This document shows, piece after piece, positions 795 through 32,814 of a stretch of DNA of 64,000 nt. The stretch's first letter is position 1, and every line of letters starts with the position of its first letter. Under the pieces are notes generated by a model, which worked only from the letters and a program-made list of their open reading frames with translations, was not told the origin of the DNA and did not search any database. The stretch covers positions 558,001-622,000 of the forward strand of contig NZ_CP061296.1 in the NCBI RefSeq assembly GCF_018687555.1. The letters run 5' to 3'. The stretch comes from Polynucleobacter sp. MWH-P3-07-1 (lineage in GTDB: Bacteria > Pseudomonadota > Gammaproteobacteria > Burkholderiales > Burkholderiaceae). The position numbers and the translations under genes were made by a program.

Positions 795-797
795 TAA

Positions 798-18511: not shown

Positions 18512-18797
18512 ATGAATATGCCAGGAAATAATCGTGATTTAGAGGAGGAGTTGGCGATAAATTACTCGACTGAGTGATGCAGAATACTTTGCCAAAGTCC
18601 CTTTTATAGTAACTAGATTGCGCGCATGGCGTAGATTAAAATCATCCGAAGGGGTGACTCAACCCAATATGACAATTACAAAGGTTATTGCGCTGGCATT
18701 TGCAAATAGCGTTTTAAATAGTGTCATCAAATGCTGTCGTGATTATCGTAATAATCACGACACAGAGACGGATAGGAGTAGCATTAACACATGTTAA
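18512..18797 (+). pseudogene. Broken or frameshifted small gene
   Basis: One frame starts at ATG 18512 (MNMPGNNRDLEEELAINY) and stops at 18575-18577. Another frame continues from about 18561 (TRLSDAEYFAKVPFIVTRLRAW) to a TAA at 18795-18797. Joined by a one-base shift they make one plausible protein of about 95 residues. The final TAA overlaps the next gene's ATG (ATGTTAA), which supports a once-translated gene. A strong GAGGAGGAG at 18542-18550 lies within it, so translation from an unusual ATT at 18561 is an alternative. Confidence 0.35.
18735..18762. promoter_or_regulatory. Perfect 12-bp inverted repeat before the winged-helix gene
   Basis: TGTCGTGATTAT (18735-18746) and ATAATCACGACA (18751-18762) are exact inverted copies around CGTA. 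The site lies 28 bases before ATG 18791. It could be an operator or an RNA hairpin that controls this gene. Confidence 0.5.
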
Positions 18798-19147
18798 AAC
18801 CTAATTCTTATATTCGGTTTCTCAAGTTGGTTGATGCATTAAATACTAAAAGTAGCATCCGCAAATTGGACTCTATTGAGGCCTTGCTTCTAAATTGCAT
18901 CATGATCGATGACCAGGCCGGCCGTTCTTTTCTTGTCGGGGATCTGATTAATCTAAAATTATTGGGCTCTCAAGCTACTCTGCACAAACGAGTAACGAAT
19001 CTTCGGTCACTTGGCTACATCAGCCTCATAGCTCAGAGTGATGCTCGCAAGAAGAGGGTGATACCAACAAAACTCTCGTACAAGAGGCTTGAATCTCTTT
19101 CAAGTTGTCTGGAGCGAGCTACAAAAGCTCTTACTTCTAGGACTTAA
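18791..19147 (+). CDS. MarR-like winged-helix protein
   Basis: The 118-residue protein has helices followed by FLVGDLINLKLLGSQATLHKRVTNLRSLGYISLIAQSDARKKRVIPTKLSYKRLESLS. That is a winged-helix layout with a wing (SDARKKRVI) close to the MarR pattern. It is likely a DNA-binding regulator of the element. It sits behind a perfect inverted repeat and its end overlaps the convergent gene by 11 bases. Confidence 0.6.
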   Translation: MLKPNSYIRFLKLVDALNTKSSIRKLDSIEALLLNCIMIDDQAGRSFLVGDLINLKLLGSQATLHKRVTNLRSLGYISLIAQSDARKKRVIPTKLSYKRLESLSSCLERATKALTSRT

Positions 19148-19565
19148 AGCGCTGACGCACTGTTTTTTCGACTGGGATTGCTTGCGCTCTCCCCCTGTTT
19201 TCTCTTTGTTGATCTTCTACCGCTTTTGCGAACTCAATCTCAGAAATTGCTTTTTGTTCAGCCTGCTTGCCTAGTTCTGAGGCTGGGATAACTTCGCCTA
19301 GGGCTTTAAGCGTATCAACGGTAGGTTTCCCCGTCTTAATTATTCCGGAAGGGGGATTCATCATTTTATGTAGTGTTGTCGCAAGGATCTTGCCATCTGC
19401 ATCCAGGACTGATTCCTGTACTCCGAACCAGTTGTTGATGACTGTCGCACCTAGAGCCTCAATGCTCTCAAGAGTTCTGTAATAAATCGAATGTTCTTCT
19501 TGACCAGTTTTTGGGTTGATTCGTTTCGAAGAGTAGACGCGAATGGTGTTAGCTGGACTATTCAT
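19137..19565 (-). CDS. Hypothetical protein, element 2
   Basis: The 142-residue protein begins MNSPANTIRVYSSKRINPKTG, with a possible small beta domain (SIYYRTLESIEALGATVINNW), and ends in a charged helical tail (AEQKAISEIEFAKAVEDQQREN). There is no signal or membrane segment and the family is not recognised. It lies 19 bases downstream of the DUF3293-like gene, probably in the same operon. Confidence 0.55.
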   Translation of the reverse strand: MNSPANTIRVYSSKRINPKTGQEEHSIYYRTLESIEALGATVINNWFGVQESVLDADGKILATTLHKMMNPPSGIIKTGKPTVDTLKALGEVIPASELGKQAEQKAISEIEFAKAVEDQQRENRGRAQAIPVEKTVRQRFKS

Positions 19566-19584
19566 TATTAAAAAAGATCAATAA

Positions 19585-20292
19585 CTAGCGGGCAATAGCT
19601 ACTTGACCAGCAGCGATTATCTTAAATATTCTATCTAGCTCTGTTCCTATGCCCATTGAGCTTCCATCAGGCTTAGCTAGTGGCCAAGGCTTATTTAGAT
19701 CCCAGTCAGCGGGCGATAGCCAGTGAGCCTGTTCTCGATCGGATACTGTCATTAACCATGCTTTCTCAGTCTTGCTTAACTTAGCTGCCTCTAATTGCTG
19801 CTTGCTTGATAGGCCAACAACCCACGTATTGATATCTTCATCGGAAGGTGCATCTATTGGCCGGCGCAATCGTAGTGAAACATACGCATCTCTTGTTCCA
19901 ATCCAGACAAATGCATTCTGAGAATATTTATCGGATAAGTGCTCAGCTTGGCTCTCCGTAATGCCGAGAATCAGTACGCTATCTTCTTTTGGCCATTCTT
20001 CAGCTACATCCTGTCCGTAACCATCAATATATTTGAAACCAAGAGCAACTACATCGCGAATTAAGCTGGATTGAGCCTTTGCGTTGTCGACATCCGTGAA
20101 CTTGTCGCTGTAAGGGTTGTGCGCAGTGATAAATGCAGCTGTAGTAACGCCTTGCGCGATAAGCAGTCTAGATAACTCAAGATTACTTTGCCCAACGAAT
20201 AGGGCTAATGGCTTTGAGTCATTCACTACAAACTTAGCCTCGCGATAAGCGCGAATTAGGAATGGTGGGATACCTGAAATAGGTGAGGTCAT
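19585..20292 (-). CDS. DUF3293-like protein
   Basis: ATG 20292 has AGGAG 6 bases upstream; the upstream in-frame ATGs lack one. The 235-residue product has ALFVGQSNLELSRLLIAQG, then FITAHNPYSDKFTDVDNAKAQSSLIRDV, GYGQD, EEWPKEDSVLILGIT and SQNAFVWIG. This matches the DUF3293 pattern (T-x-x-NP, N-x-x-x-x-x-L, acidic strand, QNA). DUF3293 has no established biochemical role. The C-terminal ~100 residues have no known match. Confidence 0.55.
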   Translation of the reverse strand: MTSPISGIPPFLIRAYREAKFVVNDSKPLALFVGQSNLELSRLLIAQGVTTAAFITAHNPYSDKFTDVDNAKAQSSLIRDVVALGFKYIDGYGQDVAEEWPKEDSVLILGITESQAEHLSDKYSQNAFVWIGTRDAYVSLRLRRPIDAPSDEDINTWVVGLSSKQQLEAAKLSKTEKAWLMTVSDREQAHWLSPADWDLNKPWPLAKPDGSSMGIGTELDRIFKIIAAGQVAIAR

Positions 20293-20378
20293 ACATTTCT
20301 CCTGTTTAGCCATTTTGACAAAAGTCTGGGTATGGCAATTCGGAATAACTCCACCCAACGGCTAAATCTTATATGGTG

Positions 20379-21429
20379 GATTCAACTACGAAGTGCAACT
20401 TTGAACAACTAGTTAAGGAGGCTAAGGATGTTTTAGTATCCAAAGCTTCTAGACCTGCAAGTCAAAGTAGCCATGACCTATCAACACCTTAGCCAAACTG
20501 AACGATATCAGATTTATATCCTCATGAAAGACGGAAAAACCCAAACTCAAATAGCCCAACTGATGGATCGGCATAAGTCGACCATTAGCCGAGAGCTTGC
20601 TCGCAATACGGGGCTCAAAGGTTACCGTCCCAAGCAAGCCTGCCTGTTGGCAGAAGAACGCTCATTAGGCTGCCGTAATGCCGCCCAAATAACAGCCGAT
20701 CAATGGAATCAGACAGAAGATTGCCTCTTAGCTCAGTGGAGCCTCGTCCAAATTGCCAATCAGGTTGGCATTAGTCATGAGACCATCTACCGCCATGTCT
20801 ACGCCGATAAAGCCGCTGGCGGCAATCTTTACCAGCAGCTGCGTTGCCAAAAAAAGCGCAAGAAACGCTATGCCAGCGGCCGTGATCGCAGAGGCCAAAT
20901 AGTAGGTAGGCGGCCGATCAGTGAGCGCCCAGCGCACATTGAGACAAGATCCCAAGTCGGCCACTGGGAAGGCGATACTGTAATTGGAGCGGCCCACAAG
21001 CAAGCTGTTGTGACCTTGGTTGAGCGCAAGAGTGGCTATGCCGTTTTGGCTAAGGTCAAGAACAAGACGTCGGATTTAGTCAGTAGCGCCATCATCACTA
21101 AATTAAACGCCGTGACCCCACTCGTTAAAACCCTGACTTTTGACAACGGCAAGGAATTTGCCGAGCACGCCAGGATTGATACAGCTCTTCAATCAACGAC
21201 GTACTTTGCGGATCCGTTTGCTAGTTGGCAACGTGGATCAAATGAAAACTTCAATGGTCTATTGCGGCAATACATCCCCAAAAAGAGACCGCTATCTACT
21301 GTGACCGATAAGGAGCTTAGAATGATCCAAGACCGTTTAAACAACCGACCTAGAAAACGATTAGGATTTAAAACCCCCAATGAAGTATTTATGCAGTCCT
21401 TAAACCGTGTTGCACTTCGTGTTTGAATC
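20379..21429 (+). mobile_element. IS30-family insertion sequence
   Basis: The left end reads GATTCAACTACGAAGTGCAA and the right end, read inward, GATTCAAACACGAAGTGCAA: 20 positions with two differences. Between them lies one intact transposase gene. No clear short target duplication was seen. It separates the DUF3293-like operon from the minus-strand genes at 21442-22435. Confidence 0.85.
20473..21426 (+). CDS. IS30-family transposase
   Basis: The 317-residue protein has an N-terminal helix-turn-helix (LSQTERYQIYILMKDGKTQ... HKSTISRELARN) and a DDE catalytic core. Catalytic residues are in HWEGDTVIG (Asp), TFDNGKEFAEH (Asp) and RGSNENFNGLLRQYIPK (Glu). Length and motifs are those of IS30 enzymes. 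It appears intact and probably active. Confidence 0.95.
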   Translation: MTYQHLSQTERYQIYILMKDGKTQTQIAQLMDRHKSTISRELARNTGLKGYRPKQACLLAEERSLGCRNAAQITADQWNQTEDCLLAQWSLVQIANQVGISHETIYRHVYADKAAGGNLYQQLRCQKKRKKRYASGRDRRGQIVGRRPISERPAHIETRSQVGHWEGDTVIGAAHKQAVVTLVERKSGYAVLAKVKNKTSDLVSSAIITKLNAVTPLVKTLTFDNGKEFAEHARIDTALQSTTYFADPFASWQRGSNENFNGLLRQYIPKKRPLSTVTDKELRMIQDRLNNRPRKRLGFKTPNEVFMQSLNRVALRV

Positions 21430-21441
21430 TACGTATCAATA

Positions 21442-21669
21442 CTATTTTCTAATCAATCTAAATAGCTTAAGGACTACGAATACGGCAATGCTCACTACAA
21501 AGATAAATAGGAAAGAAAGTGGATACGAAACTCCAGCTACGATTGCGTCTTGATCGGTGTAATTCGGCGGAAGAATTCTATATTGATTCTTAAAGATATA
21601 CGAGAGAGCGCATAAGATTACAAACAATATTATTGAATAGCGAAGGGATCTATCTGGTTTATTGATCAT
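21442..21669 (-). CDS. Small membrane protein, two helices
   Basis: The 75-residue product has two hydrophobic segments (YSIILFVILCALSYIF and YPLSFLFIFVVSIAVFVVLKLF) joined by a polar loop with QYRILPPNY, and a positively charged end (RLIRK). Its start overlaps the upstream gene's stop (ATGA). The function is unknown. The downstream IS30 insertion may have removed further genes. Confidence 0.55.
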   Translation of the reverse strand: MINKPDRSLRYSIILFVILCALSYIFKNQYRILPPNYTDQDAIVAGVSYPLSFLFIFVVSIAVFVVLKLFRLIRK

Positions 21670-22136
21670 GAAAAACTCAGTGAGAGATGTTGCAGCGGTA
21701 TTCGGGTCAAATCTTCTATATTTCGCAGGGCATCATCCTTGCAGTCTAGACGCATCCATAAACTTAGCTCCCTGTGGCTGCGCAATGCAGTAGCGATGCC
21801 ATTCAAGTACGGCTCACTTTCTACTCGAAGGAAGACGGAGGCTATTAACTCATCTTTACTCCTGGTAAGAGTTAGTTCCTGGCAGCTATTTTTACCAGCA
21901 AACTCAGCATGCCCACAGTAAGCAACAATCTTTAAAGGTAGATCACTAAAGAGCTTTGCAGCATTGGGACAACTCTCGTTGGGCGGAGCGATTAATAAAT
22001 CCGCTATCTCAAGCCAGGCGCCTTGTCTGTCGATCTCTCTAACTGCATTTTTGGCTATAGAGTCAAATACATAGGGGGTTAGTTCTGCTTCAATTAGCAA
22101 CTTTTTGAAGATGAGACTAGCTTCGTTCATCACCAT
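21666..22136 (-). CDS. Hypothetical protein, element 2
   Basis: The 156-residue soluble protein has Asp/Glu- and Leu-rich helices and a strand region (LKIVAYCGHAEFAGKNSCQELTLTRSK). No domain is recognised. The ATG lies within the last codons of the upstream secreted-protein gene and its own end overlaps the next gene, so the three form one operon (22435 to 21442). Confidence 0.5.
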   Translation of the reverse strand: MVMNEASLIFKKLLIEAELTPYVFDSIAKNAVREIDRQGAWLEIADLLIAPPNESCPNAAKLFSDLPLKIVAYCGHAEFAGKNSCQELTLTRSKDELIASVFLRVESEPYLNGIATALRSHRELSLWMRLDCKDDALRNIEDLTRIPLQHLSLSFS

Positions 22137-22435
22137 CCCTTCATTACTGGAGCTTGTGGAGCTTGGCGGGGAGTATTGATCGTGGTATTCGGCATAGCGG
22201 GGGCCGGGGTAGCCGTGGCAGTGCCTTGATAGGCGCCAGCGGGTGAGTAGTAGTTAGTCTGTCCGTTATCCACCTGAGAAGACCCAACGCTTTGTCCTTG
22301 GGGGGTATAAGTTGTAGTTACGCCACTCGGGGAGGTCTGCTGGTAGCCTTTGTAGGCTCCGTTAGCGTCATAGATTGCTTGTGCGCTGGCAATGACGGGG
22401 CTAAATGCAATTAATAAACCAATAACGTATTTCAT
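22130..22435 (-). CDS. Small secreted Tyr/Thr-rich protein
   Basis: The 101-residue product has a signal peptide (MKYVIGLLIAFSPVIASAQA). The mature part has low-complexity repeats of Gly-Ala-Tyr and Thr (ANGAYKGYQQTSPSG, SPAGAYQGTATATPAPAMP). GGAG lies 6 bases before ATG 22435. It is first in an operon of three. The function is unknown; similar small periplasmic repeat proteins are common in betaproteobacteria. Confidence 0.6.
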   Translation of the reverse strand: MKYVIGLLIAFSPVIASAQAIYDANGAYKGYQQTSPSGVTTTYTPQGQSVGSSQVDNGQTNYYSPAGAYQGTATATPAPAMPNTTINTPRQAPQAPVMKGW

Positions 22436-22497
22436 GGAGGGCTCCAGGTTAGAAGTAGCTACTATCGCTAAAAAAAGATACGTATTTTTAGGTAATG

Positions 22498-22511
22498 AAC
22501 TATTTATAGTT
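22498..22511. promoter_or_regulatory. Palindrome before the methyltransferase operon
   Basis: AACTAT-TT-ATAGTT is a perfect 6-bp inverted repeat in the AT-rich region between the divergent units at 22435 and 22586. It is a candidate operator, but no dedicated regulator gene is adjacent. Confidence 0.3.
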
Positions 22512-22585
22512 ATTAGTCTAATCCGTTCCCCCTAAGTTAAACTAAAAACCAATAATTAATACTCAAAAGTGGGCTTATTTAACGC

Positions 22586-23923
22586 ATGGCAATTAATCAG
22601 GCAAACATCCTTATCGATTTAGAAAAGCTCGTGAATCCAGTGGATAAGAAGGAGTTTGCTTATGGGTTCTTAACTGCATACGGCTATTCAAAGGCTACGA
22701 TTACCCGATTACGCAGTTCCGATGGTAGAAACCTAGCAGCAAATCCTGAATTTGGTGAGATTGCCTTTAAAAAAGGCGTTTATTTCAAACCAGTAGAGCC
22801 CGGACATAATATTCACGAAATTGTTGACCATCTGAGAGTTAGCGCTGATGTAACAAGAAATAATATTAGATTCGTCATTGCAACAGATTGGATTGATTTT
22901 GTTGCCTATGATCTAAAAGCAGATGAGCGCCTAGAGTGCTTGCTGACCACACTCCCAGAGAACTACACGTTCTTTTTACCATTGGCTGGCTTTGAAAAAG
23001 CGACTATCTATTCAGAGAATCCAGCAGATGTTAAGGCGGCTGAGCAAATGGGGCGCCTCTTTGATTTAATTAAAGAGAAGAATCAGCCGAAGTCCCCCGA
23101 GGAAGTTCATGCTCTAAACGTCTTCTTAACTAGACTCTTATTCTGCTTTTTTGCTGAAGATACGGGGATTTTTGAAAAATCTCAAATGAGTAATTCGGTT
23201 GCCTCATTTACCAGCGAAGATGGATCAGACGTTGCGACGTTCTTCAAAGAATTGTTTGAGGTGCTAAATGAAAATGATAGCTCTTCGATTCGTAAATCCA
23301 AGCCCGCATATCTGAAAAGTTTTCCATATGTAAATGGCGGATTATTTAAGAGCAAAGTGCCCGTTCCAGAATTTGGCGCAAAAGCTCGCAGGGTTCTCCT
23401 AGATTGCAGCACTCTTAAGTGGTCTGAGATTAATCCTGATATTTTCGGCTCGATGTTTCAATCTGTTATCGACGAAGATCAGAGGGGTAACTTAGGACAG
23501 CATTACACATCGGTTACCAATATCATGAAGGTTATACAGCCTTTATTTTTAGACAAGCTGGAAGCTGCCTTAGAAGATTCAAAAAAGAGTGAGTCAAAAC
23601 TAAAGACATTGCTGGATAGAATTTCGAAAATAAAAATATTTGATCCAGCTTGCGGTTCTGGTAACTTTTTGATTATTGCTTATAAAGAGTTGCGCAAAAT
23701 TGAGATGGCTGTTTTTAAGGCACTTAATGAAGTGAGCGAGCAGGATGTGATGTTCATGAGCAACATTAAGCTATCTCAGTTTTATGGGATAGAAATTGAT
23801 GACTTTGCTCACGAAATTGCCTTGTTGTCTTTATGGCTAACAGAGCATCAAATGAATCAAGCATTTAAGGGTGAGTTTGGTTATGCCCCCCTTCCTTGCC
23901 CCTTAGGGATTCTGGCAACATAG
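22586..23923 (+). CDS. MmeI-like DNA methyltransferase, N-terminal part (frameshifted)
   Basis: The 445 residues cover the N-terminal helical domain and the first half of the methyltransferase domain. The SAM-binding motif FDPACGSGNF lies at 352-361 and is followed by YGIEIDDFAHEIALLSLWL. The frame ends at 23923, just after a C6 run (23886-23891), in PLPCPLGILAT. The catalytic NPPF motif is in the next frame, at 23998. One extra C in the run would restore a single protein of about 905 residues, the usual size for MmeI-like enzymes. The N-terminal EAKQ nuclease motif of true MmeI enzymes is not seen, so this looks methylation-only. Confidence 0.8.
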   Translation: MAINQANILIDLEKLVNPVDKKEFAYGFLTAYGYSKATITRLRSSDGRNLAANPEFGEIAFKKGVYFKPVEPGHNIHEIVDHLRVSADVTRNNIRFVIATDWIDFVAYDLKADERLECLLTTLPENYTFFLPLAGFEKATIYSENPADVKAAEQMGRLFDLIKEKNQPKSPEEVHALNVFLTRLLFCFFAEDTGIFEKSQMSNSVASFTSEDGSDVATFFKELFEVLNENDSSSIRKSKPAYLKSFPYVNGGLFKSKVPVPEFGAKARRVLLDCSTLKWSEINPDIFGSMFQSVIDEDQRGNLGQHYTSVTNIMKVIQPLFLDKLEAALEDSKKSESKLKTLLDRISKIKIFDPACGSGNFLIIAYKELRKIEMAVFKALNEVSEQDVMFMSNIKLSQFYGIEIDDFAHEIALLSLWLTEHQMNQAFKGEFGYAPLPCPLGILAT

Positions 23924-25299
23924 CATGTGACAATAGTCTGAGGTTGGATTGGGATAAGTTCTGTACAAATATTGCATCAGAAGTGTACGTCTGCGGAAAC
24001 CCGCCGTTCTTGGGCTCTAAGAATCGCTCCGAGGAGCAGAACAATGATATGGATGAAGTCTTTAGTGATTTTGAAAAGCATCGCTATCTTGATTTTGTTG
24101 CCTGTTGGTTCTGGAAGGGTGCGCAATATATTGCAGGCACAAATTCTGAGCTTTCATTTGTAGCCACGAATTCTCTATGCCAAGGCGAGCAGGTTGCATT
24201 GTTATGGCCAAGGATTTCTACTCTGAATATATCAATGCATATAGCCTACCAATCCTTCCCCTGGAAAAATAATGCAAAAAATAATGCGGGTGTACACGTT
24301 GTAATTATTGGCCTCTCGTGTTTTGCAAGGAAAAAATTTATATTTAGCAATCAAAAAGATATTTTTTTATCAAAAGAGGTTTCTGAGATAAGCCCATATT
24401 TACTTGAAGGAAATAATAGCTATGTAATTAGCAGGGCTAAACCTTTATGTAGTGTGTCTCAAATGGTTTATGGAAATAAACCTGTTGATGGCGGACACCT
24501 GATACTGGATAAAAGACAATACGAGTCTCTTATAGAATCCGAGCCAAGCTCTAGAAGATGGATCAAAAGATTATACGGAGCCGATGATTTTCTTAATGGA
24601 AAAGAGCGATATTGTTTATGGCTATTGGGTATATCGTCTGATGAAATCAATTCCATGCCAGAAGTATTACGTAGAGTTGAGCAGGTGAAGTTGACCAGGC
24701 TTGCCAGCCCGAAGGCCGCAACCAGAAAGCTCTCAGAGGTTCCCCATTTATTTGGCGAAATTAGACAGCAAATGGGCGGGCACTATATCTTGATACCTAG
24801 AGTTTCTTCAGAACGACGAATCTATATGCCAACTGCTTTTCTGGATTCTGAAATTATTTCTACTGATGGAAATCAAACAATTCCCAATGGAACTCTCTAT
24901 GATTTTGGAATCATAAATTCGTCAATGCATTTAGACTGGATGAGAACAGTTTGCGGACGACTGGAAAGTCGATTTAATTATTCCGCCACAATTGTTTACA
25001 ACACTTTTCCTTGGCCAAATGCATCATCGATACAAAAGAAGGAAATAGAAAGTCTCTCTGAGAAGATTTTACTGGTACGAGAGAATTTTCCTCAAAAAAC
25101 TTTAGCTCAATTATATGATCCAGACTTAATGCCTGCCGAATTGCTAGAGGCTCATCAAGCCCTGGATGTTGCGGTTGAAAAGCTCTATCGAGAGAGGCCA
25201 TTTAAAGGCTCTTCTGAGCGTCTTGAGCACTTATTTAAACTTTATGAGAAATTAACCTCCAACAATTCTGATAATCAAGCTAATGGTGAATTATGGTAG
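23896..25299 (+). CDS. MmeI-like DNA methyltransferase, C-terminal part
   Basis: The 467-residue frame overlaps the N-terminal part. It contains the adenine-methylase motif IV (NPPFLGSKN, residues 35-38 being NPPF) and the C-terminal target-recognition region (GHYILIPRVSSERRIYMPTAF, WLKR-like segment RRWIKRLYGADDF). In this family the last part (ESRFNYSATIVYNTFPWP) is typical of the substrate-specific region. The TTG at 23896 is unlikely to be a real start. The end overlaps the helicase start by 7 bases, so the gene belongs to the three-part defence-like operon. Confidence 0.8.
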   Translation: MPLRDSGNIACDNSLRLDWDKFCTNIASEVYVCGNPPFLGSKNRSEEQNNDMDEVFSDFEKHRYLDFVACWFWKGAQYIAGTNSELSFVATNSLCQGEQVALLWPRISTLNISMHIAYQSFPWKNNAKNNAGVHVVIIGLSCFARKKFIFSNQKDIFLSKEVSEISPYLLEGNNSYVISRAKPLCSVSQMVYGNKPVDGGHLILDKRQYESLIESEPSSRRWIKRLYGADDFLNGKERYCLWLLGISSDEINSMPEVLRRVEQVKLTRLASPKAATRKLSEVPHLFGEIRQQMGGHYILIPRVSSERRIYMPTAFLDSEIISTDGNQTIPNGTLYDFGIINSSMHLDWMRTVCGRLESRFNYSATIVYNTFPWPNASSIQKKEIESLSEKILLVRENFPQKTLAQLYDPDLMPAELLEAHQALDVAVEKLYRERPFKGSSERLEHLFKLYEKLTSNNSDNQANGELW

Positions 25300-27314
25300 A
25301 TCTAGTTAGAGTTGAATACGCCCAAACAGGCAAGAGCTCATCGCTTAATCCGATGGGGATGCGTGAAATGCAAGCCCGTGCATACGAGGCTAGATATGCG
25401 CAATACTTGCTATTAAAGGCGCCACCAGCATCTGGAAAATCACGAGCCTTAATGTTCCTTGGTTTGGATAAGTTAAAAAATCAAGGGATTAAGAAGGTAA
25501 TTGTCTCTGTACCTGAAACTTCTATCGGCAGCTCATTCAAAGACGTGAAGTTAACTAACGATGGCTTCTTCTCTGATTGGCATGTTGAGGATAGAAATAA
25601 TCTATGCGTTGGCGGAGAGTCTGGAAAAGTAAACGCTTTCATAGCATTTCTCAGGCATCCAACAGATGAGATCTTAGTATGCACTCATGCAACATTACGA
25701 TTCGCATACGAAAAGCTTACCCCGTCCGACTTTAACGATACATTAGTTGCTATTGATGAATTTCACCACGTCTCTGCGGGTGAAGAAAGCAAATTAGGGC
25801 AACTCATTGACGGCCTCATTAAGGGCTCAAACGCCCATATCGTAGCGATGACCGGCTCATATTTCCGCGGTGATGCTGTACCTATCTTGCTCCCTGAAGA
25901 TGAAGCCCTATTCAAGCAAGTTACATATTCTTACTACGAACAATTAAATGGCTATCAATATCTCAAGTCTCTTGGCATTGGTTACCACTTTTATAAAGGG
26001 CGTTACCTCGAGGCCTTGCACGAGGTTCTAGATCCGAATAAGAAAACTATTATTCATATTCCCAACGTAAATGCTATTGAGTCTACAAAAGACAAGTATC
26101 GGGAAGTTGATGACATCTTAGGTGTCATCGGTACTGATCCAGTTAAGAACTCTCAAACTGGAATAATTACGATTACGGCCCCCAACGGAAAAATACTTAA
26201 AGTTGCCGATCTGGTTGATGACAATGAGATGCGACCTGAAGTTCAGAAATACTTAAGAGGTGTTGAGTCAGCAGATGATATTGACATCATCATTGCCCTG
26301 GGTATGGCTAAAGAAGGTTTTGATTGGCCGTGGTGCGAGCATGTCTTAACTATTGGCTATCGCAGCTCAATGACGGAAATTGTTCAAATTATTGGACGCG
26401 CTACTCGTGATTGTAAAGGCAAGTCTCATGCTCAATTCACGAACCTAATTGCGCAGCCAGACGCTGAAGATGGAGACGTTAAGGTCTCTGTAAACAATAT
26501 GCTCAAGGCCATAACAGTTTCACTGTTGATGGAAAACGTATTAGCACCAAACATTAACTTCAGGCCACGCTCAAGACTGTTGCCTGACGAGCAATTGCCT
26601 CCCGGCACTGTCATCATTGAGGATGTAACAGCCCCTGTCTCCGATAGCGTATTACAAGCCCTAGATAACTTAGATAATATCAGGGCCGCATTGATTCAAA
26701 AGCCTGAAGTAGCTGCGGCAGCCGTAGTCCAAACTCCGCCAGAGGTGATTAATGAGTATGAGCTCCCTAAAATCATTGAAACAATGTATCCGGATCTCAC
26801 CCCTGCCGAAGTGAATACTGTTAAAGAGGCAATTCTTACCCAAATGGTTGTGCAAAATGGCGGAGGTTTATTTGAAGGTGGAGACTTGCCGCCTGGTGCA
26901 GAAATATTTGTTCCGCCTGGCACTAAAACACACACAGGCGATCCTGTGGATGTAAATAGCCTGCCCAAAGCTGGTCAGCAGTTCGTAAAAATGGGCAATA
27001 AGTTCATCAATATCGAACATCTAAATATTGACCTCATTGGCCAAGTCAACCCTTTCCAAGGAGCCTACGAGATTCTTTCAAAAGCATTTACTGCTGAAAT
27101 GCTTAAATCCATCCAGGAGGTCGTTGTTGGGATGCGTGCAACGGTTACCGACGAAGAGGCAGTTATTTTTTGGCCGAAGATTGAGGAGTTCTTTAGAGAG
27201 CACGGCAAAGAGCCGAGCATTACTTCTAGCAATCTTTTAGAGAAGAGGTATGCAGAAGTATTAGCGTTCATGAGGCGTAAAAAACAAGAGGGTATGAGTA
27301 AGAATGGTGATTAA
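25293..27314 (+). CDS. DEAD/DEAH-box helicase of a restriction-like system
   Basis: The 673-residue superfamily 2 helicase has a Q-like region at 22-31 (GMREMQARAY), Walker A APPASGKS (43-50), motif II DEFH (155-158), a motif III-like MTGSY and motif VI QIIGRATRDC (365-374). The architecture recalls type I/III restriction translocases. The last 200 residues have no known domain and are rich in Pro and Gly in part (PPGAEIFVPPGTK). It overlaps both neighbours (7 and 11 bases), which strongly suggests one translated unit with the methyltransferase and the nuclease. Confidence 0.85.
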   Translation: MVDLVRVEYAQTGKSSSLNPMGMREMQARAYEARYAQYLLLKAPPASGKSRALMFLGLDKLKNQGIKKVIVSVPETSIGSSFKDVKLTNDGFFSDWHVEDRNNLCVGGESGKVNAFIAFLRHPTDEILVCTHATLRFAYEKLTPSDFNDTLVAIDEFHHVSAGEESKLGQLIDGLIKGSNAHIVAMTGSYFRGDAVPILLPEDEALFKQVTYSYYEQLNGYQYLKSLGIGYHFYKGRYLEALHEVLDPNKKTIIHIPNVNAIESTKDKYREVDDILGVIGTDPVKNSQTGIITITAPNGKILKVADLVDDNEMRPEVQKYLRGVESADDIDIIIALGMAKEGFDWPWCEHVLTIGYRSSMTEIVQIIGRATRDCKGKSHAQFTNLIAQPDAEDGDVKVSVNNMLKAITVSLLMENVLAPNINFRPRSRLLPDEQLPPGTVIIEDVTAPVSDSVLQALDNLDNIRAALIQKPEVAAAAVVQTPPEVINEYELPKIIETMYPDLTPAEVNTVKEAILTQMVVQNGGGLFEGGDLPPGAEIFVPPGTKTHTGDPVDVNSLPKAGQQFVKMGNKFINIEHLNIDLIGQVNPFQGAYEILSKAFTAEMLKSIQEVVVGMRATVTDEEAVIFWPKIEEFFREHGKEPSITSSNLLEKRYAEVLAFMRRKKQEGMSKNGD

Positions 27315-28548
27315 GCATGATGGCGCCAATGGCACTAAAAGGCTGACGCTAGATGAAATATTCGATAGGCCAGATGAGTTTGGTTTATTGATCGTAAAAC
27401 AAAAATCAAGCTCCTCTCCAAAATCCATTGAAGCTGCTAAGTTCGAAGAGATTAATCAATTTATTGATAAGAACCAAAGACTCCCAGAAGTTGATGCAGA
27501 CAACATTATGGAGAAGCAGCTTGCACATAGATTCAATAGCTTTAAAAAATCCAATGTATCTGAGGCAATACGAGCCTTAGACAGACACTCAATCCTTCCG
27601 CCAATAGCTGAAGCTGCGGTAGAAAGTGAACCAGCACCGATAAAAAAAGAAGTCACTTCTATCTCAGATATATTAAGTTCGGATAGTTTGGGATTACTCA
27701 ATACACCTGATCTAGGTATCTTTGACTTAAAGCATGTGCCCGCAATACCAAGAGAAATGCCGGATGAAATTGCGGAGAGAAAGAGATGCGAGGATTTTTA
27801 TAAGTTCCAATCGATTTTTAGGCAGTCTCACGAGAGATTAGATACTCGTCAGGTTGAGGTTATACCGTTCAAGCAGGGCTCCCAAATCAACGAGGGGGAT
27901 GTGTTTATCCTGCGCGGAATGCTTTGTCTAGTTGATGAAGTAGGTGAATTTAGTAGCTCTAGTGAGCCATACAACCCGCGCTTAAGGGTTATTTTTGAGA
28001 ATGGTACCGAGTCCAACTTGCTACTTCGATCCCTTGCCGCAGCCCTTTACAAGGATGAGCACGGACGTAGATTGCTAGGTAGTGCAGAAGATGTTGAAAA
28101 GAAACTCAACAATATTACCCATAAAGACAAGCGCTCGGGTGTGGTTTATATCGTTAGAACGTTAAGCGAGAATCCGGTTCTAAAGAATGTGCCAAATTTA
28201 TACAAGATTGGTTATACAGAGCTAACTGTTGAGGAGAGAACCAAGAATGCTGAGCGAGATACGGCATTTCTTGAGTCGCCCATTAAGATTGTTGCCTCTA
28301 TTGAGTGCTTCAATATGAACCCCCAAAAATTTGAGAGCCTAATTCATGCCTTTTTGGCTGCTCAACGCCTGGTCATGGAGTTGACGGGCAGGGATGGAAG
28401 GAAATACCACCCCAAGGAGTGGTTCTCAGTTCCGCTGGATACCGCAAGGGAGGTCATACGACGAATTATTGATGGAACCATCATTCAATATCGTATTGAC
28501 AATACAACCGGCCAAATAATTCAGAAAAATAACCTGCTACCAAAATAA
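27304..28548 (+). CDS. GIY-YIG family nuclease
   Basis: The 414-residue protein ends in a T5orf172/MUG113-type GIY-YIG domain, residues ~278-375: GVVYIVRTLSENP, NLYKIGYTELTVEERTKNAERD, then a Glu-containing helix FESLIHAFLAAQ. These give the Tyr, Tyr, Arg and Glu catalytic positions. The first 270 residues are a separate region (helical, with the module EINQFIDKNQRLPEVD typical of helicase-associated segments). The helicase gene ends within it by 11 bases. Probable function: DNA cleavage driven by the helicase, with self protected by methylation. Confidence 0.85.
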   Translation: MVIKHDGANGTKRLTLDEIFDRPDEFGLLIVKQKSSSSPKSIEAAKFEEINQFIDKNQRLPEVDADNIMEKQLAHRFNSFKKSNVSEAIRALDRHSILPPIAEAAVESEPAPIKKEVTSISDILSSDSLGLLNTPDLGIFDLKHVPAIPREMPDEIAERKRCEDFYKFQSIFRQSHERLDTRQVEVIPFKQGSQINEGDVFILRGMLCLVDEVGEFSSSSEPYNPRLRVIFENGTESNLLLRSLAAALYKDEHGRRLLGSAEDVEKKLNNITHKDKRSGVVYIVRTLSENPVLKNVPNLYKIGYTELTVEERTKNAERDTAFLESPIKIVASIECFNMNPQKFESLIHAFLAAQRLVMELTGRDGRKYHPKEWFSVPLDTAREVIRRIIDGTIIQYRIDNTTGQIIQKNNLLPK

Positions 28549-28692
28549 GCGACGTCTGATCTAAAACGTTTTAACTGCTGGCGAATCGGTGGCTCGAAAT
28601 AATTTGCCTATCAATAATAAGGACTAGTATCAACAGTATTACCTAGAAAATTGGGTCCACGCATCAGTTTTGACTTGAAAGCGACCCGATCA

Positions 28693-28917
28693 ATGCTTAA
28701 ATTTCTACTATTAACTCCGTTATTGCTTGTTTTTGGTTGTGCAACACACGTTGTTAGCTCATCCCCGCGCTCTGTAGTTGTTGAATCCCAATCTCTAAAT
28801 GCAGCTGAGGCTCAGACTCAGGCGGATCAAGAATGCGCAAAGTATAAAAAGTTCGCTCAAATGACTTCAAAAGGGAGTTACTGGGAGCGAAATTACATCT
28901 TCACTTGTGTTGATTGA
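28693..28917 (+). CDS. Small putative lipoprotein
   Basis: The 74-residue product from ATG 28693 starts MLKFLLLTPLLLVFGCATHV, a lipoprotein signal with Cys16. A short polar mature part follows, with two more Cys (DQECAKY and FTCVD). An earlier TTG (28651) would put 14 extra residues before the signal, which is unlikely. The function is unknown. Confidence 0.55.
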   Translation: MLKFLLLTPLLLVFGCATHVVSSSPRSVVVESQSLNAAEAQTQADQECAKYKKFAQMTSKGSYWERNYIFTCVD

Positions 28918-28975
28918 TCTACGGCTTTATTTAGGCTGAACTGGCCGGCTCCAGACTCCATAAAAGGGAAAGTAA

Positions 28976-29458
28976 ATGGGATTTATCAATAGGCATCGCA
29001 GACCTGCTTCATATTCACTATTTGGCAAGCCGAAAAAATCAAATACCAAGAAAGCTGAAGCGCCAAGCTCAACAGGATCGTCGGGGACGCGTCCGGGGCT
29101 TTTGGTTATGGTTGCATTCGCTGTAATTTCCGTCATATTAATAGTCATCTTTAGTGGCAATACTCCGCCCAAGGTTATGCGTGACAAGACTCTGGGGGAA
29201 ATGTCGGCCTCTGAATATGCCACTTATTTACAGGAAGAAAAGCAGGGAGTAACACTTAGGTTTTCCGATCCGGCAGAAAAGGCACGCTACATCAGAGAAT
29301 CCAAAGAGGTCATGGGCAACTTAAGGGGTGCGGAATACAGGTTAAATGACATCTCTTCTAATGAATCAACGAAAGCGCGGCAAGAGCGATATGAAAACGC
29401 TCTTGAGGCAGTCAAGGAATTTAACAAAACCTATCGGCCTCTAGTTGAGGCGCATTAA
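28976..29458 (+). CDS. Hypothetical single-span membrane protein
   Basis: The 160-residue protein has a Lys/Ser-rich cytoplasmic N-terminus (FGKPKKSNTKKAEAPSSTGSSG), a membrane helix at ~42-61 (LLVMVAFAVISVILIVIFSG) and a charged helical outer domain (EYATYLQEEKQGVTLRFSDPAEKARY). AAAGGGAAAG precedes ATG 28976. No family is recognised. It lies downstream of the lipoprotein gene in the same direction. Confidence 0.6.
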   Translation: MGFINRHRRPASYSLFGKPKKSNTKKAEAPSSTGSSGTRPGLLVMVAFAVISVILIVIFSGNTPPKVMRDKTLGEMSASEYATYLQEEKQGVTLRFSDPAEKARYIRESKEVMGNLRGAEYRLNDISSNESTKARQERYENALEAVKEFNKTYRPLVEAH

Positions 29459-29470
29459 GAGCAATAAGAA

Positions 29471-29671
29471 GCTTTGCATAAAAAGTGCTCTAAATCTGCA
29501 TAATAGAACTAGTAGCAAACCAATAGAAACAAGGGGTTACGAGCCCCTGATGACTAATTCTATTATGCAAATTAATACTTGTAAGTCATTAATTTATATG
29601 AAGAAAGTGTCACTCAAGTACATTGGCTACGAACCAAGGGGTCGTGGGTTCAATTCCTGCCAGCCGCACCA
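29471..29671 (+). repeat. ~200-bp direct repeat with tRNA-Arg 3' fragment, copy A
   Basis: The block is nearly identical to 32345-32545. It begins TTGCATAAAAAGTGCTCTAA, holds TGCATAATAGAA (29497) and its inverse TTCTATTATGCA (29558) flanking GGGGTTACGAGCCCC, and ends with a tRNA-Arg(ACG) 3' half (29622-29671): loop CTACGAA, T-arm GTTCAATTC and an encoded CCA. No matching 5' half is present, so no functional tRNA. A former attachment site is the likely origin. Confidence 0.75.
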
Positions 29672-29679
29672 TACTACAT

Positions 29680-29708
29680 AAGGGTCTCCCGTCAGGGAGG
29701 CCCTTTCT
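29680..29708 (+). terminator. Intrinsic terminator after tRNA-Arg fragment
   Basis: AGGGTCTCCC (29681-29690) pairs with GGGAGGCCCT (29695-29704) around GTCA, flanked by A and TTTCT. It directly follows the tRNA-Arg fragment and was probably captured with it. Confidence 0.7.
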
Positions 29709-29711
29709 ATT

Positions 29712-30042
29712 TGCATAATAAAATGAATTTTGCATAATAGAATCTACTTTTTAGGTCTCTATTGCCTAATTTACCGCCTGCAGAGCCATATAGAATATGA
29801 GCCCTCTATTAATCTTGCTTTAATTGGCTTGCATAATAGAATTAATCTGCATTTTAAATTTCCCACAATTATTTTCTTCAATCTCCCAAGAATTAAGTCC
29901 CATGCTTTGGTGATTATTTTTGTTATTTTTAATTGCATCACGACTACATATGGCCGCTTTTGTATCTAGAGCAGTCTTTCAAAGTAGGTGATTTTTAGGG
30001 TTCTGACGGGCAGAGAACGGCCAATAACGGCCTGTCGAAACT
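29712..30042. repeat. AT-rich intergenic DNA with TGCATAATAGAA copies
   Basis: No gene is supported. Three copies of a TGCATAATA-based 12-mer lie at 29712 (ending AAA), 29731 and 29830, all in the same orientation. Together with those in the two ~200-bp repeats (four more) they form a dispersed family that looks like recombinase- or regulator-binding sites. Confidence 0.5.
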
Positions 30043-30741
30043 TTATGGTCTACTCTTAAATAACAAATTTAATGATTCGGAATATTGAGCGGAATCAATT
30101 GCTTTTTCATCCATAAATACGCTTTGTACACTAAAGCCGGGTATGACCAATCCAAAGAGGGCTACGGATAGCTGTTGAGTATTTTTATTCTTTTTCATCT
30201 TGCCTTTTTTCATTAAGAGAATAATTTTTTGCTCTAAGCCGCTACGAATCTGTTCAAAGTAGATCAACATGGTTTTACGTACCTCAGGTTCAACCATCGA
30301 CATTGACCATACATGAAACGCAATCCCCTTACCGGGACCTTTGGTAATTTCTTCGGCAAAACTGGCTAACTCTTCAATGATCTCTAATAAGCTCAAATCA
30401 CGCGCATCGGATTCTTTGAGAATGGTCTCGATACGATCACTGAATCGACCTAGGTTCTGCTCAGTAATAAGTTGAACAATTTCTTCTTTGGCTTTGAAGT
30501 GGTGATACAAGTTTCCACGGGAACAGTCTGCGGCCAATTGAATATCTTTCATGGAGGTGCCAGCAAAGCCTTGTTTGGCAAAGCAGGCCCGAGCCGCCAT
30601 CAAAATCTTCTCTCTGCCTTTGATAAGGTCTTCTTTTGTGGCATTTAGTAGACGCTTTTTAAGCGTGGTGCCTTGACCTGTTCTAGCAACAGGAGAGTTT
30701 GATTTATGTAGGGGTTTGGATACTTTTTGCTTACTTGCCAT
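30043..30741 (-). CDS. TetR-family transcriptional regulator
   Basis: The protein has 232 residues from ATG 30741; GTG 30747 is also possible. A basic N-terminal tail precedes the TetR DNA-binding domain: GREKILMAARACFAKQGFAGTSMKDIQLAADCSRGNLYHHFKAKEEI. The C-terminal ligand domain is helical (RSGLEQKIILLMKKGKMKKNKN). It is divergent from the two secreted-protein genes at 30971 and 31397, with a 17-bp direct repeat between. It probably represses itself and perhaps those genes. Confidence 0.9.
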   Translation of the reverse strand: MASKQKVSKPLHKSNSPVARTGQGTTLKKRLLNATKEDLIKGREKILMAARACFAKQGFAGTSMKDIQLAADCSRGNLYHHFKAKEEIVQLITEQNLGRFSDRIETILKESDARDLSLLEIIEELASFAEEITKGPGKGIAFHVWSMSMVEPEVRKTMLIYFEQIRSGLEQKIILLMKKGKMKKNKNTQQLSVALFGLVIPGFSVQSVFMDEKAIDSAQYSESLNLLFKSRP

Positions 30742-30755
30742 AGTCACTTTCTCTC

Positions 30756-30863
30756 AAAACCGACCGCTTGATTCAAATTTAGTAATTGTTCCCAGTATTA
30801 GCCTTAGTAGCCTTATTCGGCTACCCTTCATGGCTAAACCGCTTAAAAAACCGACCGCTTGAT
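30756..30863. promoter_or_regulatory. Repeated AAAACCGACCGCTTGAT, candidate TetR operator
   Basis: The 17-mer AAAACCGACCGCTTGAT occurs at about 30757-30773 and again at about 30847-30863, both just upstream of the TetR gene. ACCGACCG is a common half-site in TetR-family operators, although each copy is not a full palindrome. Two copies 90 bases apart suggest control of both divergent units. Confidence 0.5.
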
Positions 30864-30970
30864 CCTAAAAATTAAATTGACCTTAGTTTATATATATATT
30901 TTAATCGCATTAGCTCTAAAGCAAATAGCTTTGAGGCTAATATTTGACATAAATAAACCTAAGGAAAAAC

Positions 30971-31354
30971 ATGTCTAAGATATCCAAATATTGTGTTGCT
31001 GCTGCAATACTTTTTCCTGTACTTGCTTTTGCTGGTGGTGGTTATGGAGGCGGTGGAAATGTAAAGTCTGCTGCAGTGCAAAATACTGTAGTCACTTCCG
31101 CTTCTGGTGGGGGTACAGCGGTAGCTGGGGGTCTTGGTATCGCCTACGCCGGTCGTACGCCAATTGCCGGTAGTATTGGTGCCGCTCAATCTGATACTAG
31201 CAAATGCATGAGCCCATGTACTGCAGCTGCAGCCGTTAACACAACCACTGTATCTACTAATGCGTCTGGTCTTCATTCTCTGAGGGGTTTATATCCAGCT
31301 AAGATTGTCTCTATTGGCGTTGTAACTAACTTAGCCCCAATTGCACCAAATTAA
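30971..31354 (+). CDS. Secreted Gly/Ala-rich small protein
   Basis: The 127-residue product has a signal peptide (MSKISKYCVAAAILFPVLAFA) and then GGGYGGGGNVKSAAVQNTVV. A Cys pair (SKCMSPCTAAAAV) lies in the middle. Low-complexity Gly, Ala, Ser and Thr dominate. AAGGAAAAAC precedes ATG 30971. The next gene, 42 bases on, is similar in style, so both may be parts of one surface or matrix structure. The family is not recognised. Confidence 0.6.
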   Translation: MSKISKYCVAAAILFPVLAFAGGGYGGGGNVKSAAVQNTVVTSASGGGTAVAGGLGIAYAGRTPIAGSIGAAQSDTSKCMSPCTAAAAVNTTTVSTNASGLHSLRGLYPAKIVSIGVVTNLAPIAPN

Positions 31355-31396
31355 GCCAACTTATCAAGTGTTGTGCCCAGTAGTCCTCACGGATTA

Positions 31397-32077
31397 ATGC
31401 TTAGGTATCTCTTTGCCCTTTTTTGTTTGTTGATTGCACATCATGCAGTTAGTCAAACTGCAAGCACAGTCGGGACAGCCTCTGGGACTGCGAATTCATC
31501 TTTGGGGACGCAGGCCTTAAGTAATAGCTTTAGCACTACAACCAATGCATATTCGAGTGGAGCTGTTGCTTATTCCGGCTCATATACTGCTAGGACTACC
31601 GGCGCAGCAATGTTGGGTGGTTTTTCAGGCTCATTTAGCTCGGATTATTGTGGTGCAACTGCTCAAGCCGGTGTTGGTGGAATTGGTTTTTCTTTTGGTG
31701 CTGGCGGTCCGGTAATCGATAACGGCTGTTTAATGCTTCGCAGTTTTGAGCGAATACAGCAAGCAGCCTCAGCACTTGGCCCCAGCGATCCTGAAGGAGC
31801 GGCCTTATTGAGGAGTGCATCTTTAGAGGTATTGGCAGAAGTTGATCCTAGGATTCGTAACATTTTTGTTAACAAAGGTCTCATAGTTTCTCCGGAAGTA
31901 AAAGCACTTGCCTCTAACGGCAGTTCGCTTGTTGGAGCGGATCCTCAGTTGGGGAAGGATCTCACGGTAAAACAAATTCGGCCAATTAATCAACCAGCAA
32001 TTTCCTCGATTAACAAGACTGGGGCTGATGAAAATGAAACTAGCAAAATGAAATCTTCAGCTGCATTTGCAAAATAG
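31397..32077 (+). CDS. Secreted Ser/Ala/Thr-rich protein
   Basis: ATG 31397 puts the signal peptide (MLRYLFALFCLLIAHHAVSQ) at the start; a GTG at 31373 would add eight residues. The 226-residue product has a low-complexity N-terminal half (ASTVGTASGTANSSLGTQALS) and a Cys pair around SSDYCGATAQAG and IDNGCLMLRS. A more ordered C-terminal half has a helical part (ALGPSDPEGAALLRSASLEVLAEVD). Probably exported. The function is unknown. Confidence 0.6.
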   Translation: MLRYLFALFCLLIAHHAVSQTASTVGTASGTANSSLGTQALSNSFSTTTNAYSSGAVAYSGSYTARTTGAAMLGGFSGSFSSDYCGATAQAGVGGIGFSFGAGGPVIDNGCLMLRSFERIQQAASALGPSDPEGAALLRSASLEVLAEVDPRIRNIFVNKGLIVSPEVKALASNGSSLVGADPQLGKDLTVKQIRPINQPAISSINKTGADENETSKMKSSAAFAK

Positions 32078-32132
32078 TTTAATTATTTGAATAAGTTGGA
32101 CTTCTTCTGCTACTAATATAAAGACCACTACA

Positions 32133-32157
32133 TGAACTGACCCCTGGGGTCAGTTCA
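32133..32157. repeat. Perfect inverted repeat TGAACTGACCCC
   Basis: TGAACTGACCCC (32133-32144), one T, then its exact inverse GGGGTCAGTTCA (32146-32157). An outer ACCAC/GTGGT pair and a following TTTTT make it a possible terminator for the secreted-protein genes. Motifs like this are also seen at insertion-sequence ends, so two fused ends are an alternative. Confidence 0.5.
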
Positions 32158-32344
32158 TTCGGGTGGTTTTTCTTTGATAGTCTGCTTTGGGTCGGACTCT
32201 GCCGATTAGACTTGGATAGGGTGATGGCCTGCTTTGGATTTAAAAGCCGCCCGATGTATTCTTTGCGCGTCCAACATTGAGTGTGAGTCTGAAGGAAAGG
32301 GCTAACTCTTACTGCCAATTTAAATGCACTAAAGAAAAGGGAAT
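32158..32344. other. Intergenic stretch, nothing recognised
   Basis: The segment between the palindrome and the second ~200-bp repeat holds no supported gene. A 79-codon minus-strand frame here has no features and crosses the palindrome, so it is not called. Bases 32546-32814 beyond the repeat also lack a convincing gene. Confidence 0.35.
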
Positions 32345-32545
32345 GCTTGCATAAAAAAGTGCTCTAAATCTGCATAATAGAACTAGTAGCAAACCAATAG
32401 AAACAAGGGGTTACGAGCCCCTGAGCGCCAATTCTATTATGCAAATTACTACTTGTAAGTCATTGATTCATATAGATAAAGTGTCACTCAAGAACATTGG
32501 CTACGAACCAAGGGGTCGTAAGTTCAAATCCTGATAGCCGCTCCA
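32345..32545 (+). repeat. ~200-bp direct repeat with tRNA-Arg 3' fragment, copy B
   Basis: The second copy of the block at 29471-29671, about 2.87 kb to the right. Divergence is concentrated at the centre (GAGCGCC for GATGACT) and in the T-arm and acceptor (GTAAGTTCAAATCCTGAT, then CGCTCCA), so this copy has decayed more than copy A. TGCATAATAGAA lies at 32371 and its inverse at 32432. It marks the right end of the TetR/secreted-protein segment. Confidence 0.75.
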
Positions 32546-32814
32546 AATATGAGAACCTCCTGTCCGCATCCTTAATATCTCTTCCTTATTAACCATCGTG
32601 CTTATAGCGCCCGGTGGTTCAGTAAACCAAATGCCCCACAGCAAAGAAAAACCAGTCTTACGCCAAGTTATTACAACCTCGAACGGGGTCTTAAGGGTTA
32701 AGCTAAGTCCTGAGGGTCCGAATTTGGTCGTCTTTACCTTGGAGTTGATGTGGCAGGAGAGGTTGCGACGGCTGGTTAATCTCTTACTTTCGGCTTACTT
32801 AAGCCTAGAAAAGT

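What the first reader, a model, noticed from the sequence alone, without database searches (positions are those of the whole stretch)
22586..28548. Compact methyltransferase-helicase-GIY-YIG operon, a probable restriction-like defence system
The sequence shows one transcription unit with overlaps of 7 and 11 bases: a MmeI-like adenine methyltransferase (FDPACGSG and NPPF), an SF2 helicase (APPASGKS, DEFH, QIIGRATR) and a protein with a C-terminal T5orf172/MUG113-type GIY-YIG nuclease. True MmeI enzymes carry their own nuclease; here the N-terminal nuclease motif is not seen and cleavage is probably supplied in trans by the helicase plus nuclease. From known families this would be modification plus DNA translocation plus cleavage. 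The exact triplet does not match a standard type I, II or III system that I can name.
Basis: partly seen in the sequence, partly recalled or inferred. Interest (0 to 1): 0.85.

Follow-up and report, generated by a model that had tools for sequence, protein, structure and literature searches.

The report
Known DnmA-YeeB-YeeC locus, methyltransferase gene broken
These are three neighbouring genes of a widespread, already described bacterial DNA-modification and probable phage-defence set (DnmA-YeeB-YeeC), here carried on an inserted DNA island and with the DNA-modifying gene broken in two, so this copy is probably switched off.

Summary
The triplet is real but not new: it is the DnmA(YeeA)-YeeB-YeeC cluster named in Bacillus subtilis, reported as conserved and defence-linked (PMC9973331, PMC7261158; passages read). 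Missed: the methyltransferase is not one gene. It is two ORFs in different frames (22586-23923 and 23896-25299), changing frame at a run of six C (23886-23891); 70 of 80 related loci hold one full-length ORF. Helicase and GIY-YIG nuclease are open, with all checked motif positions present. The gene order holds in 78 of 80 best relatives. Of 369 sampled genomes of the class, all 12 with the helicase have an MmeI-type recognition domain within 2.7 kb, against 26 of 357 without it. The locus sits in a 26-kb tRNA-Met island with an integrase; a related genome shows the empty site. Methyltransferase damage beside open helicase and nuclease recurs (7 of 97 assessable relatives), which fits restriction that needs the methyltransferase as its reader (Type I-like). 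Whether this copy is off in life, phase-variable or a sequencing error is undecided. New member of a known kind; modest interest.

The parts
22586..23923 (+). dnmA homologue, N-terminal piece (445 aa): MmeI_N without PD-(D/E)XK, helical spacer, methyltransferase motif I (FDPACGSG)
   Evidence: Pfam PF20464, PF20465, PF20473 positions 2-103 of 259; MmeI chain 5hr4_C E 2.9e-84; PADLOC PDLC03598
23875..25299 (+). dnmA homologue, C-terminal piece in another frame (open from 23875, first listed start TTG 23896, 467 aa from there): motif IV NPPF, target recognition domain, C-terminal domain
   Evidence: Pfam PF20473 positions 104-258, PF20466 7e-75, PF20467; open from 23875
23886..23891 (+). run of six C where the frame changes; the only C or G run of 6 or more in the operon (the window has 3 such C runs and 7 such G runs; the operon also has 9 A and 3 T runs of 6 or 7 without a break)
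25293..27314 (+). yeeB homologue, SF2 DNA translocase/helicase, 673 aa, open
27304..28548 (+). yeeC homologue, 414 aa, open: N-terminal helices, small SH3-like barrel (about residues 185-259, weak matches), C-terminal GIY-YIG (T5orf172/MUG113) nuclease
6829..32857 (.). integrated island (about 26 kb) that holds the operon, bounded by direct repeats of the tRNA-Met 3' end (6786-6876, 91% alike, and the tRNA gene 32858-32934)
   Evidence: empty site in relative genome G303 (L122)
7025..8485 (+). tyrosine integrase next to the left repeat, probable integrase of the island
   Evidence: Pfam Phage_integrase 1.6e-9, Arm-DNA-bind_3 2.8e-9

Best explanation
A DnmA-YeeB-YeeC locus carried on a tRNA-Met integrative island. 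In an intact locus the MmeI-type methyltransferase puts N6-methyladenine on one strand of a short non-palindromic site and, through its recognition domain, is also the part that finds unmodified sites. YeeB, a two-RecA-lobe SF2 translocase, then moves on DNA, and YeeC cuts through its C-terminal GIY-YIG domain. The nuclease is not free-running: it needs the methyltransferase to be aimed, as in Type I or Type ISP restriction. In this genome the methyltransferase reading frame is broken at a C6 run, recently by the look of the rest of the gene, so the system is most likely neither modifying nor restricting here. Shown by computation: anatomy, conservation, co-occurrence, frame break as read, island. 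Inferred: translocation, cleavage, dependence on the methyltransferase, loss of function in life.
For: Domains. Order kept in 78 of 80 relatives, and all three genes in the same order in the 22 of 24 genome-sampled loci whose contig reaches the nuclease. Co-occurrence 12 of 12 versus 26 of 357. Nuclease Y282, K301, G303, R312, E344, H348 identical in 44 of 44 and helicase GKS, DEFH and TGS identical in 49 of 49 aligned. The MmeI E80 position is K and the K82 position G in the window, while a second MmeI homologue of the same genome keeps D, E and K. The YeeB model resembles RIG-I/MDA5, FANCM and RadD, Z about 19-21. Published: cluster conserved and defence-linked; Vibrio crassostreae homologues affect phage sensitivity, as cited in PMC9973331; deleting dnmA in B. 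subtilis gives no growth defect (PMC7261158), as expected if the nuclease needs it. Damaged methyltransferase beside open helicase and nuclease in 7 of 97 assessable relatives. Frame break.
Against: The B. subtilis locus gave no restriction of plasmid uptake and no protection against three phages, so restriction by the family rests on the Vibrio report that I saw only as cited. The lack of a growth defect on losing dnmA is equally expected if the B. subtilis nuclease is dead, which is how its authors read it. No complex of the three proteins was tested. Loci with a damaged methyltransferase may be dead throughout and so say nothing of dependence. Draft assemblies may carry false frame shifts. 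A C6 run at the same place occurs in an intact gene (L089), so the run alone is no defect.
Confidence: 0.6

Rival explanations
1. The frame break is a sequencing or assembly error at a homopolymer, and the strain has an intact, working DnmA-YeeB-YeeC system.
For: The change lies at the only C or G run of 6 or more in the operon. Both pieces otherwise stay open and diverge at about the rate of intact relatives: mean identity to 8 outgroups 0.518 for piece A against 0.522-0.545, and 0.460 for piece B against 0.425-0.494, in 9 relatives.
Against: A single contig rated 100% complete; a run of six is short for common errors; 12 A or T runs of 6-7 in the operon show no break; piece A is the lowest of the ten compared. 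Reads were not available.
Confidence: 0.3
2. Relic: the methyltransferase of such clusters acts as an orphan regulator or not at all, and helicase and nuclease no longer restrict.
For: B. subtilis cluster inactive in the tests done; its authors call it a nonfunctional relic.
Against: Catalytic positions of helicase and nuclease are invariant over 49 and 44 relatives, the window's helicase and nuclease identities to outgroups are in the range of relatives, and Vibrio homologues affect phages as cited.
Confidence: 0.2
3. Phase variation: slippage at the C run switches the methyltransferase, and with it the system, on and off.
For: Frame change at a homopolymer with both pieces well kept. A C5 or C6 run at the same place in 2 of 62 intact relatives examined (L044, L089).
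Against: A run of six is short; the four other loci whose frame-change junctions were examined (L127, L131, L144, L091) show no C or G run of 5 or more and no short tandem repeat there (L127 has two A6 runs nearby); in 60 of 62 intact relatives examined the longest C or G run near the place is 4 or less (8 more could not be placed).
Confidence: 0.07
4. Split methyltransferase: the two pieces are translated separately and assemble into a working enzyme.
For: The break falls between motif I and motif IV, both pieces open.
Against: 70 of 80 relatives have one ORF and the damaged ones are damaged at other places; the first start of piece B is a TTG with no ribosome site that I could see by eye.
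Confidence: 0.05

Closest known systems
DnmA(YeeA)-YeeB-YeeC cluster (B. subtilis and relatives; PMC9973331, PMC7261158)
   Same: MmeI-type methyltransferase without nuclease motif, SF2 helicase first downstream, T5orf172/GIY-YIG protein second downstream, same strand.
   Different: Here the methyltransferase is frame-broken; the locus lies on a tRNA-Met island in a 1.7-Mb genome. Direct identity to the B. subtilis proteins was not measured.
MmeI and Type IIL/IIG single-chain enzymes
   Same: Spacer, gamma-class methyltransferase, TRD and C-terminal domain in the same order.
   Different: PD-(D/E)XK residues not found; nuclease and translocase are separate genes. The same genome holds a separate MmeI homologue with the motif kept (L107 4915-7740).
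Type I and Type ISP restriction (EcoR124I HsdR, LlaBIII)
   Same: Proposed logic: methyltransferase/TRD recognises, SF2 motor translocates, nuclease cuts; the YeeB model matches LlaBIII 4xqk and HsdR 2w00 among many SF2 proteins.
   Different: Nuclease is GIY-YIG in a third protein, no HsdS found in the operon, methyltransferase of MmeI type.
BREX, DISARM, ARMADA
   Same: Distant methyltransferase likeness (weaker PglX and DrmMI hits) and SF2 helicases in all.
   Different: Helicase and nuclease gave no PglZ, BrxC or DrmA/B/C hit at E 0.1; YeeB hits PbeA only weakly (5.4e-7). ARMADA was seen only as passages of a preprint (PMC12458937).

Membership tests
DnmA-YeeB-YeeC cluster | MmeI-homologous adenine methyltransferase | tested here: met
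   Five MmeI Pfam domains over the two pieces, as homology; activity not testable, and the frame is broken
DnmA-YeeB-YeeC cluster | N-terminal nuclease motif absent | tested here: met
   E80 position K and K82 position G in the window, D70 position gapped; of 71 sequences one has D at the E position, none E. Register of the alignment not certain
DnmA-YeeB-YeeC cluster | SF2 helicase gene first downstream and T5orf172/GIY-YIG gene second downstream, same strand | tested here: met
   78 of 80 relatives keep the order, some with extra genes between
DnmA-YeeB-YeeC cluster | Intact methyltransferase reading frame | tested here: not met
   Two ORFs in two frames. A defect of this copy, not a different kind
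DnmA-YeeB-YeeC cluster | m6A at a non-palindromic site | not testable with these tools
   needs a methylome
MmeI / Type IIL | PD-(D/E)XK nuclease in the same chain | tested here: not met
Type I restriction | HsdR, HsdM and HsdS subunits | tested here: not met
   No such trio in the operon; the methyltransferase is MmeI type
Type I restriction | Cleavage depends on the methyltransferase/specificity part | not testable with these tools
   Only indirect: recurrent methyltransferase loss
BREX / DISARM | PglZ and BrxC, or DrmA/B/C | tested here: not met
   Not among the PADLOC hits listed for the operon genes (for piece A the best 25 of 50 hits were shown) nor for six ORFs of the island

The most novel reading that the evidence does not exclude
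YeeB-YeeC keep a function of their own after the methyltransferase is lost. For example they may act as a Type IV-like system in which the SH3/Tudor-like barrel of YeeC (residues about 185-259) reads modified or otherwise foreign DNA. Then loci like this one, with a dead methyltransferase beside open helicase and nuclease ORFs, would be a functional state and not decay.
Probability: 0.06. Interest if true: 0.65.

Novelty: new member of a known kind. Interest (0 to 1): 0.3.

Why it matters
The family is widespread, yet I found no demonstrated mechanism for it in the searches named. Loci that lost the methyltransferase frame but kept helicase and nuclease ORFs are natural tests of whether the nuclease can act alone: a free-running Type II nuclease should kill such cells. 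The local case adds a clear island context and a warning that this copy should not be used as a working example.

Tried and rejected
Phage carriage: only 2 of 50,697 phage records matched the helicase, over 24% of it, so a phage home was dropped; plasmids hold it in 230 of 72,556 records at E 1e-30.

A loose pattern test for a residual nuclease motif (D, 6-16 residues, D/E-x-K in residues 31-120) was useless: 45 of 70 relatives and the window hit it; the window's hit starts at residue 101, past the aligned strand. I rely on the aligned positions, whose register is not certain.

Sequence search of solved structures gave nothing for YeeC by profile up to E 1 and one negligible hit by single sequence (E 0.76); for YeeB only weak helicase hits. 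Fold search of the YeeC model gave no match at E 0.001 or better, and small-barrel matches at Z about 4-6; its GIY-YIG part was barely tested by that search because the barrel filled the list. The YeeB C-terminal part (about 460-673) has low confidence in places and was not interpreted.

Long-lived pseudogene: not supported, because neither piece shows clear acceleration, though piece A is the lowest of ten. Shared phase-variation mechanism: not supported. Sigma-70 and terminator scans gave about what shuffles give.

Papers: Morgan 2009 (PMC2731913) and a DOI that I recalled for the Vibrio crassostreae study were not held, so I know them only as cited in PMC7261158 and PMC9973331. Passages seen without use for this family: PMC6712171; no term found in PMC12839542. 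Searches for further work on this cluster gave nothing that I recognised in the listings; that I found no proven mechanism rests.
Full report
What is there. Pfam assigns MmeI_N, MmeI_hel and the first part of MmeI_Mtase to the first, and the rest of MmeI_Mtase, MmeI_TRD and MmeI_C to the second. ORF A runs on to a stop at 23923 and ORF B is open only from 23875. In tblastn, intact relatives align in two frames that meet around a run of six C at 23886-23891. So as read, no full-length methyltransferase is encoded.

Family. The helicase was used as bait in named genome records; the best 80 of 197 confirmed loci were kept. In 78 of 80 the order methyltransferase-helicase-nuclease holds on one strand; in the other two (L073, L079) no methyltransferase was found in the stretch held. 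The methyltransferase is a single ORF of 865 aa or more in 70 of 80, cut by a contig end or absent in 6, and shortened or split in 4. Against the bias of picking best matches, 369 genomes drawn from the class (the window's own among them) were searched with the helicase profile at E 1e-60 and, separately, with the MmeI_TRD family: 12 have the helicase, and all 12 have an MmeI_TRD match on the same contig, 260 to 2,688 bases away, against 26 of the 357 without the helicase (Fisher p 2.4e-13). One of the 12 is the window's own genome and one (G569) has a damaged TRD.

Redundancy. The 80 loci and the 24 genome-sampled loci below share no helicases at 95% identity or more; together the 104 fall into 88 groups at 95% and 72 at 90%. 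The counts are of loci, not of independent events.

What it is called. The triplet is the DnmA(YeeA)-YeeB-YeeC cluster. PMC9973331 (passages read) reports YeeB as an SF2 helicase and YeeC as a T5orf172 protein, the same gene order across species, citation of Makarova et al. for defence islands, no effect of single deletions on three phages in B. subtilis, and a cited Vibrio crassostreae study in which deletion of the dnmA and yeeB homologues raised sensitivity to some phages. PMC7261158 (passages read) reports m6A at GACGAG by DnmA, no growth defect and no clear change of transformation on deletion, and cites Morgan et al. 2009 for the missing nuclease motif and the suggestion of a Type I-like system. 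B. subtilis also shows up as a control genome for MmeI_TRD. I did not measure identity to the B. subtilis proteins.

The nuclease motif. MmeI uses D70, E80 and K82 (PMC4833311, passages read). The same genome holds a second MmeI homologue, L107 4915-7740, that keeps this motif (D66, E76, K78). Aligned to it, the window has a gap, K and G at the three positions, and the profile comparison gives the same register. Among 71 sequences (window plus 70 relatives) the E position is D once and otherwise not acidic.

Helicase and nuclease. In alignments of 48 of 77 eligible relatives' helicases and 43 of 70 eligible nucleases, each with the window's own, Walker A GKS, DEFH, TGS and G, R, T, R of the QIIGRATR motif are identical in all 49, and Y282, K301, G303, R312, E344, H348 and EWF372-374 in all 44. 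The YeeB model (mean pLDDT 75.9) matches RIG-I/MDA5-type, FANCM and RadD SF2 proteins at Z 19-21 over residues about 20-460. The YeeC model (mean pLDDT 83.1, pTM 0.44) has N-terminal helices, a small barrel at about 185-259 with weak matches to EF-P, Tudor and KOW-like barrels, and the C-terminal GIY-YIG region.

Methyltransferase loss elsewhere. Besides the window, damaged methyltransferases were seen in L045 (N-terminal about 95 residues not found), L047 and L064 (only the C-terminal 300-360 residues found; the match starts 257 and 127 bases from the contig edge) and L091 (frame change). In the genome-sampled set of 24 loci (23, plus L121) they were seen in L127 (TRD stretch missing), L129 (interrupted near residue 140 in one frame), L131 (frame change) and L144 (several). 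That is 4 of 74 and 4 of 23 assessable (6 of the 80, and L132, were cut by a contig end or lacked the gene), 8 of 97 together. In 7 of these 8 the helicase and nuclease are open by ORF length; in L144 the helicase also looks damaged at its C-terminus. L064 counts as open in the two-ORF nuclease form that its five relatives L061-L063, L065 and L066 share. The converse also occurs: L048 (nuclease frame change) and L049 (helicase split, short nuclease) with intact methyltransferase; the bait was the helicase, so the two rates cannot be compared. Many of these are draft or metagenome assemblies. I read this as support, not proof, for a nuclease that does not run without the methyltransferase.

The run. 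C runs at the homologous place are not a mark of damage: of 62 intact relatives that could be placed, 60 have a longest C or G run of 4 or less, one has C5 (L044) and one C6 (L089). At the frame-change junctions of L127, L131, L144 and L091 there is no C or G run of 5 or more.

Age of the break. Mean identity to 8 outgroups compared with 9 intact relatives: piece A 0.518 (others 0.522-0.545), piece B 0.460 (0.425-0.494), helicase 0.576 (0.557-0.593), nuclease 0.372 (0.348-0.386). There is no clear acceleration, so the break is recent, an error, or not yet felt.

Setting. In the genus, 2 of 186 genomes have a full helicase (a third match, G380, is a weak 66-residue piece); the other, G435, is at 60% over its best stretch and 45% overall, with all three genes in one ORF each and in order (L121). 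The 3' end of tRNA-Met (32858-32934, minus) is repeated at 6786-6876 and again at genome 557237-557287. In relative G303 the DNA left of the leftmost repeat and the DNA from window 32858 onward meet at one tRNA-Met (L122), that is, the empty site. The operon thus lies in an island of about 26 kb with a tyrosine integrase at 7025-8485, next to a second, smaller island in tandem. Base composition over 14-36 kb does not set the operon apart.

Verdict. New member of a known kind, with a broken methyltransferase in this assembly. Most likely mechanism of the intact family: methyltransferase-aimed, helicase-driven GIY-YIG cleavage. What this adds is the frame break, the island, and the count of methyltransferase-less loci.

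Noticed in passing
genome L107 4915-7740 (G000:C1 about 404915-407740, minus): A second MmeI homologue in the same genome, 941 aa, with the nuclease motif kept: a probable complete single-chain Type IIL enzyme.
   Followed up: partly
window 1-6876 and genome about 557237-564876: A second, smaller island in tandem at the same tRNA-Met, with an integrase at window 18-794 and Toprim and AAA genes at 1378-3248.
   Followed up: partly
window 20376-21432: Insertion element, IS30-like by recall of its HTH_38 plus rve make-up: transposase 20473-21426 with 24-base inverted ends, 88% complementary.
   Followed up: no
window 29480-29671 and 32354-32545: A 192-base direct repeat (91% alike) holding what looks like a tRNA 3' fragment, flanking a TetR regulator and a few small ORFs; perhaps another attachment-site pair.
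   Followed up: no
L077, L082, L084, L086, L087, L096, L098; L071, L080, L090, L093, L097; L082, L086, L087: Between methyltransferase and helicase, mostly in Bacteroidota, extra gene families recur by BLAST clustering: a RhuM-like one (7 loci; Pfam run on one), a Schlafen AlbA_2-like one (5 loci; Pfam run on two) and an AAA_13 ATPase (3 loci with near-identical helicases; Pfam and PADLOC PDC-S06 run on one). From recall, Type I loci often carry such inserts too.
   Followed up: partly
L061-L066 (Acinetobacter, Providencia): YeeC is two ORFs, 95 and 304-318 aa, in all six loci: a shared split between its N-terminal part and the rest.
   Followed up: no
window 10830-14140 and L118 7697-11007: 99.2% identical stretch (3,311 bases, with a heavy-metal P-type ATPase gene) in G315 of the same genus, whose genome is not among the three of 186 with a helicase match: probably a recent transfer.
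   Followed up: no
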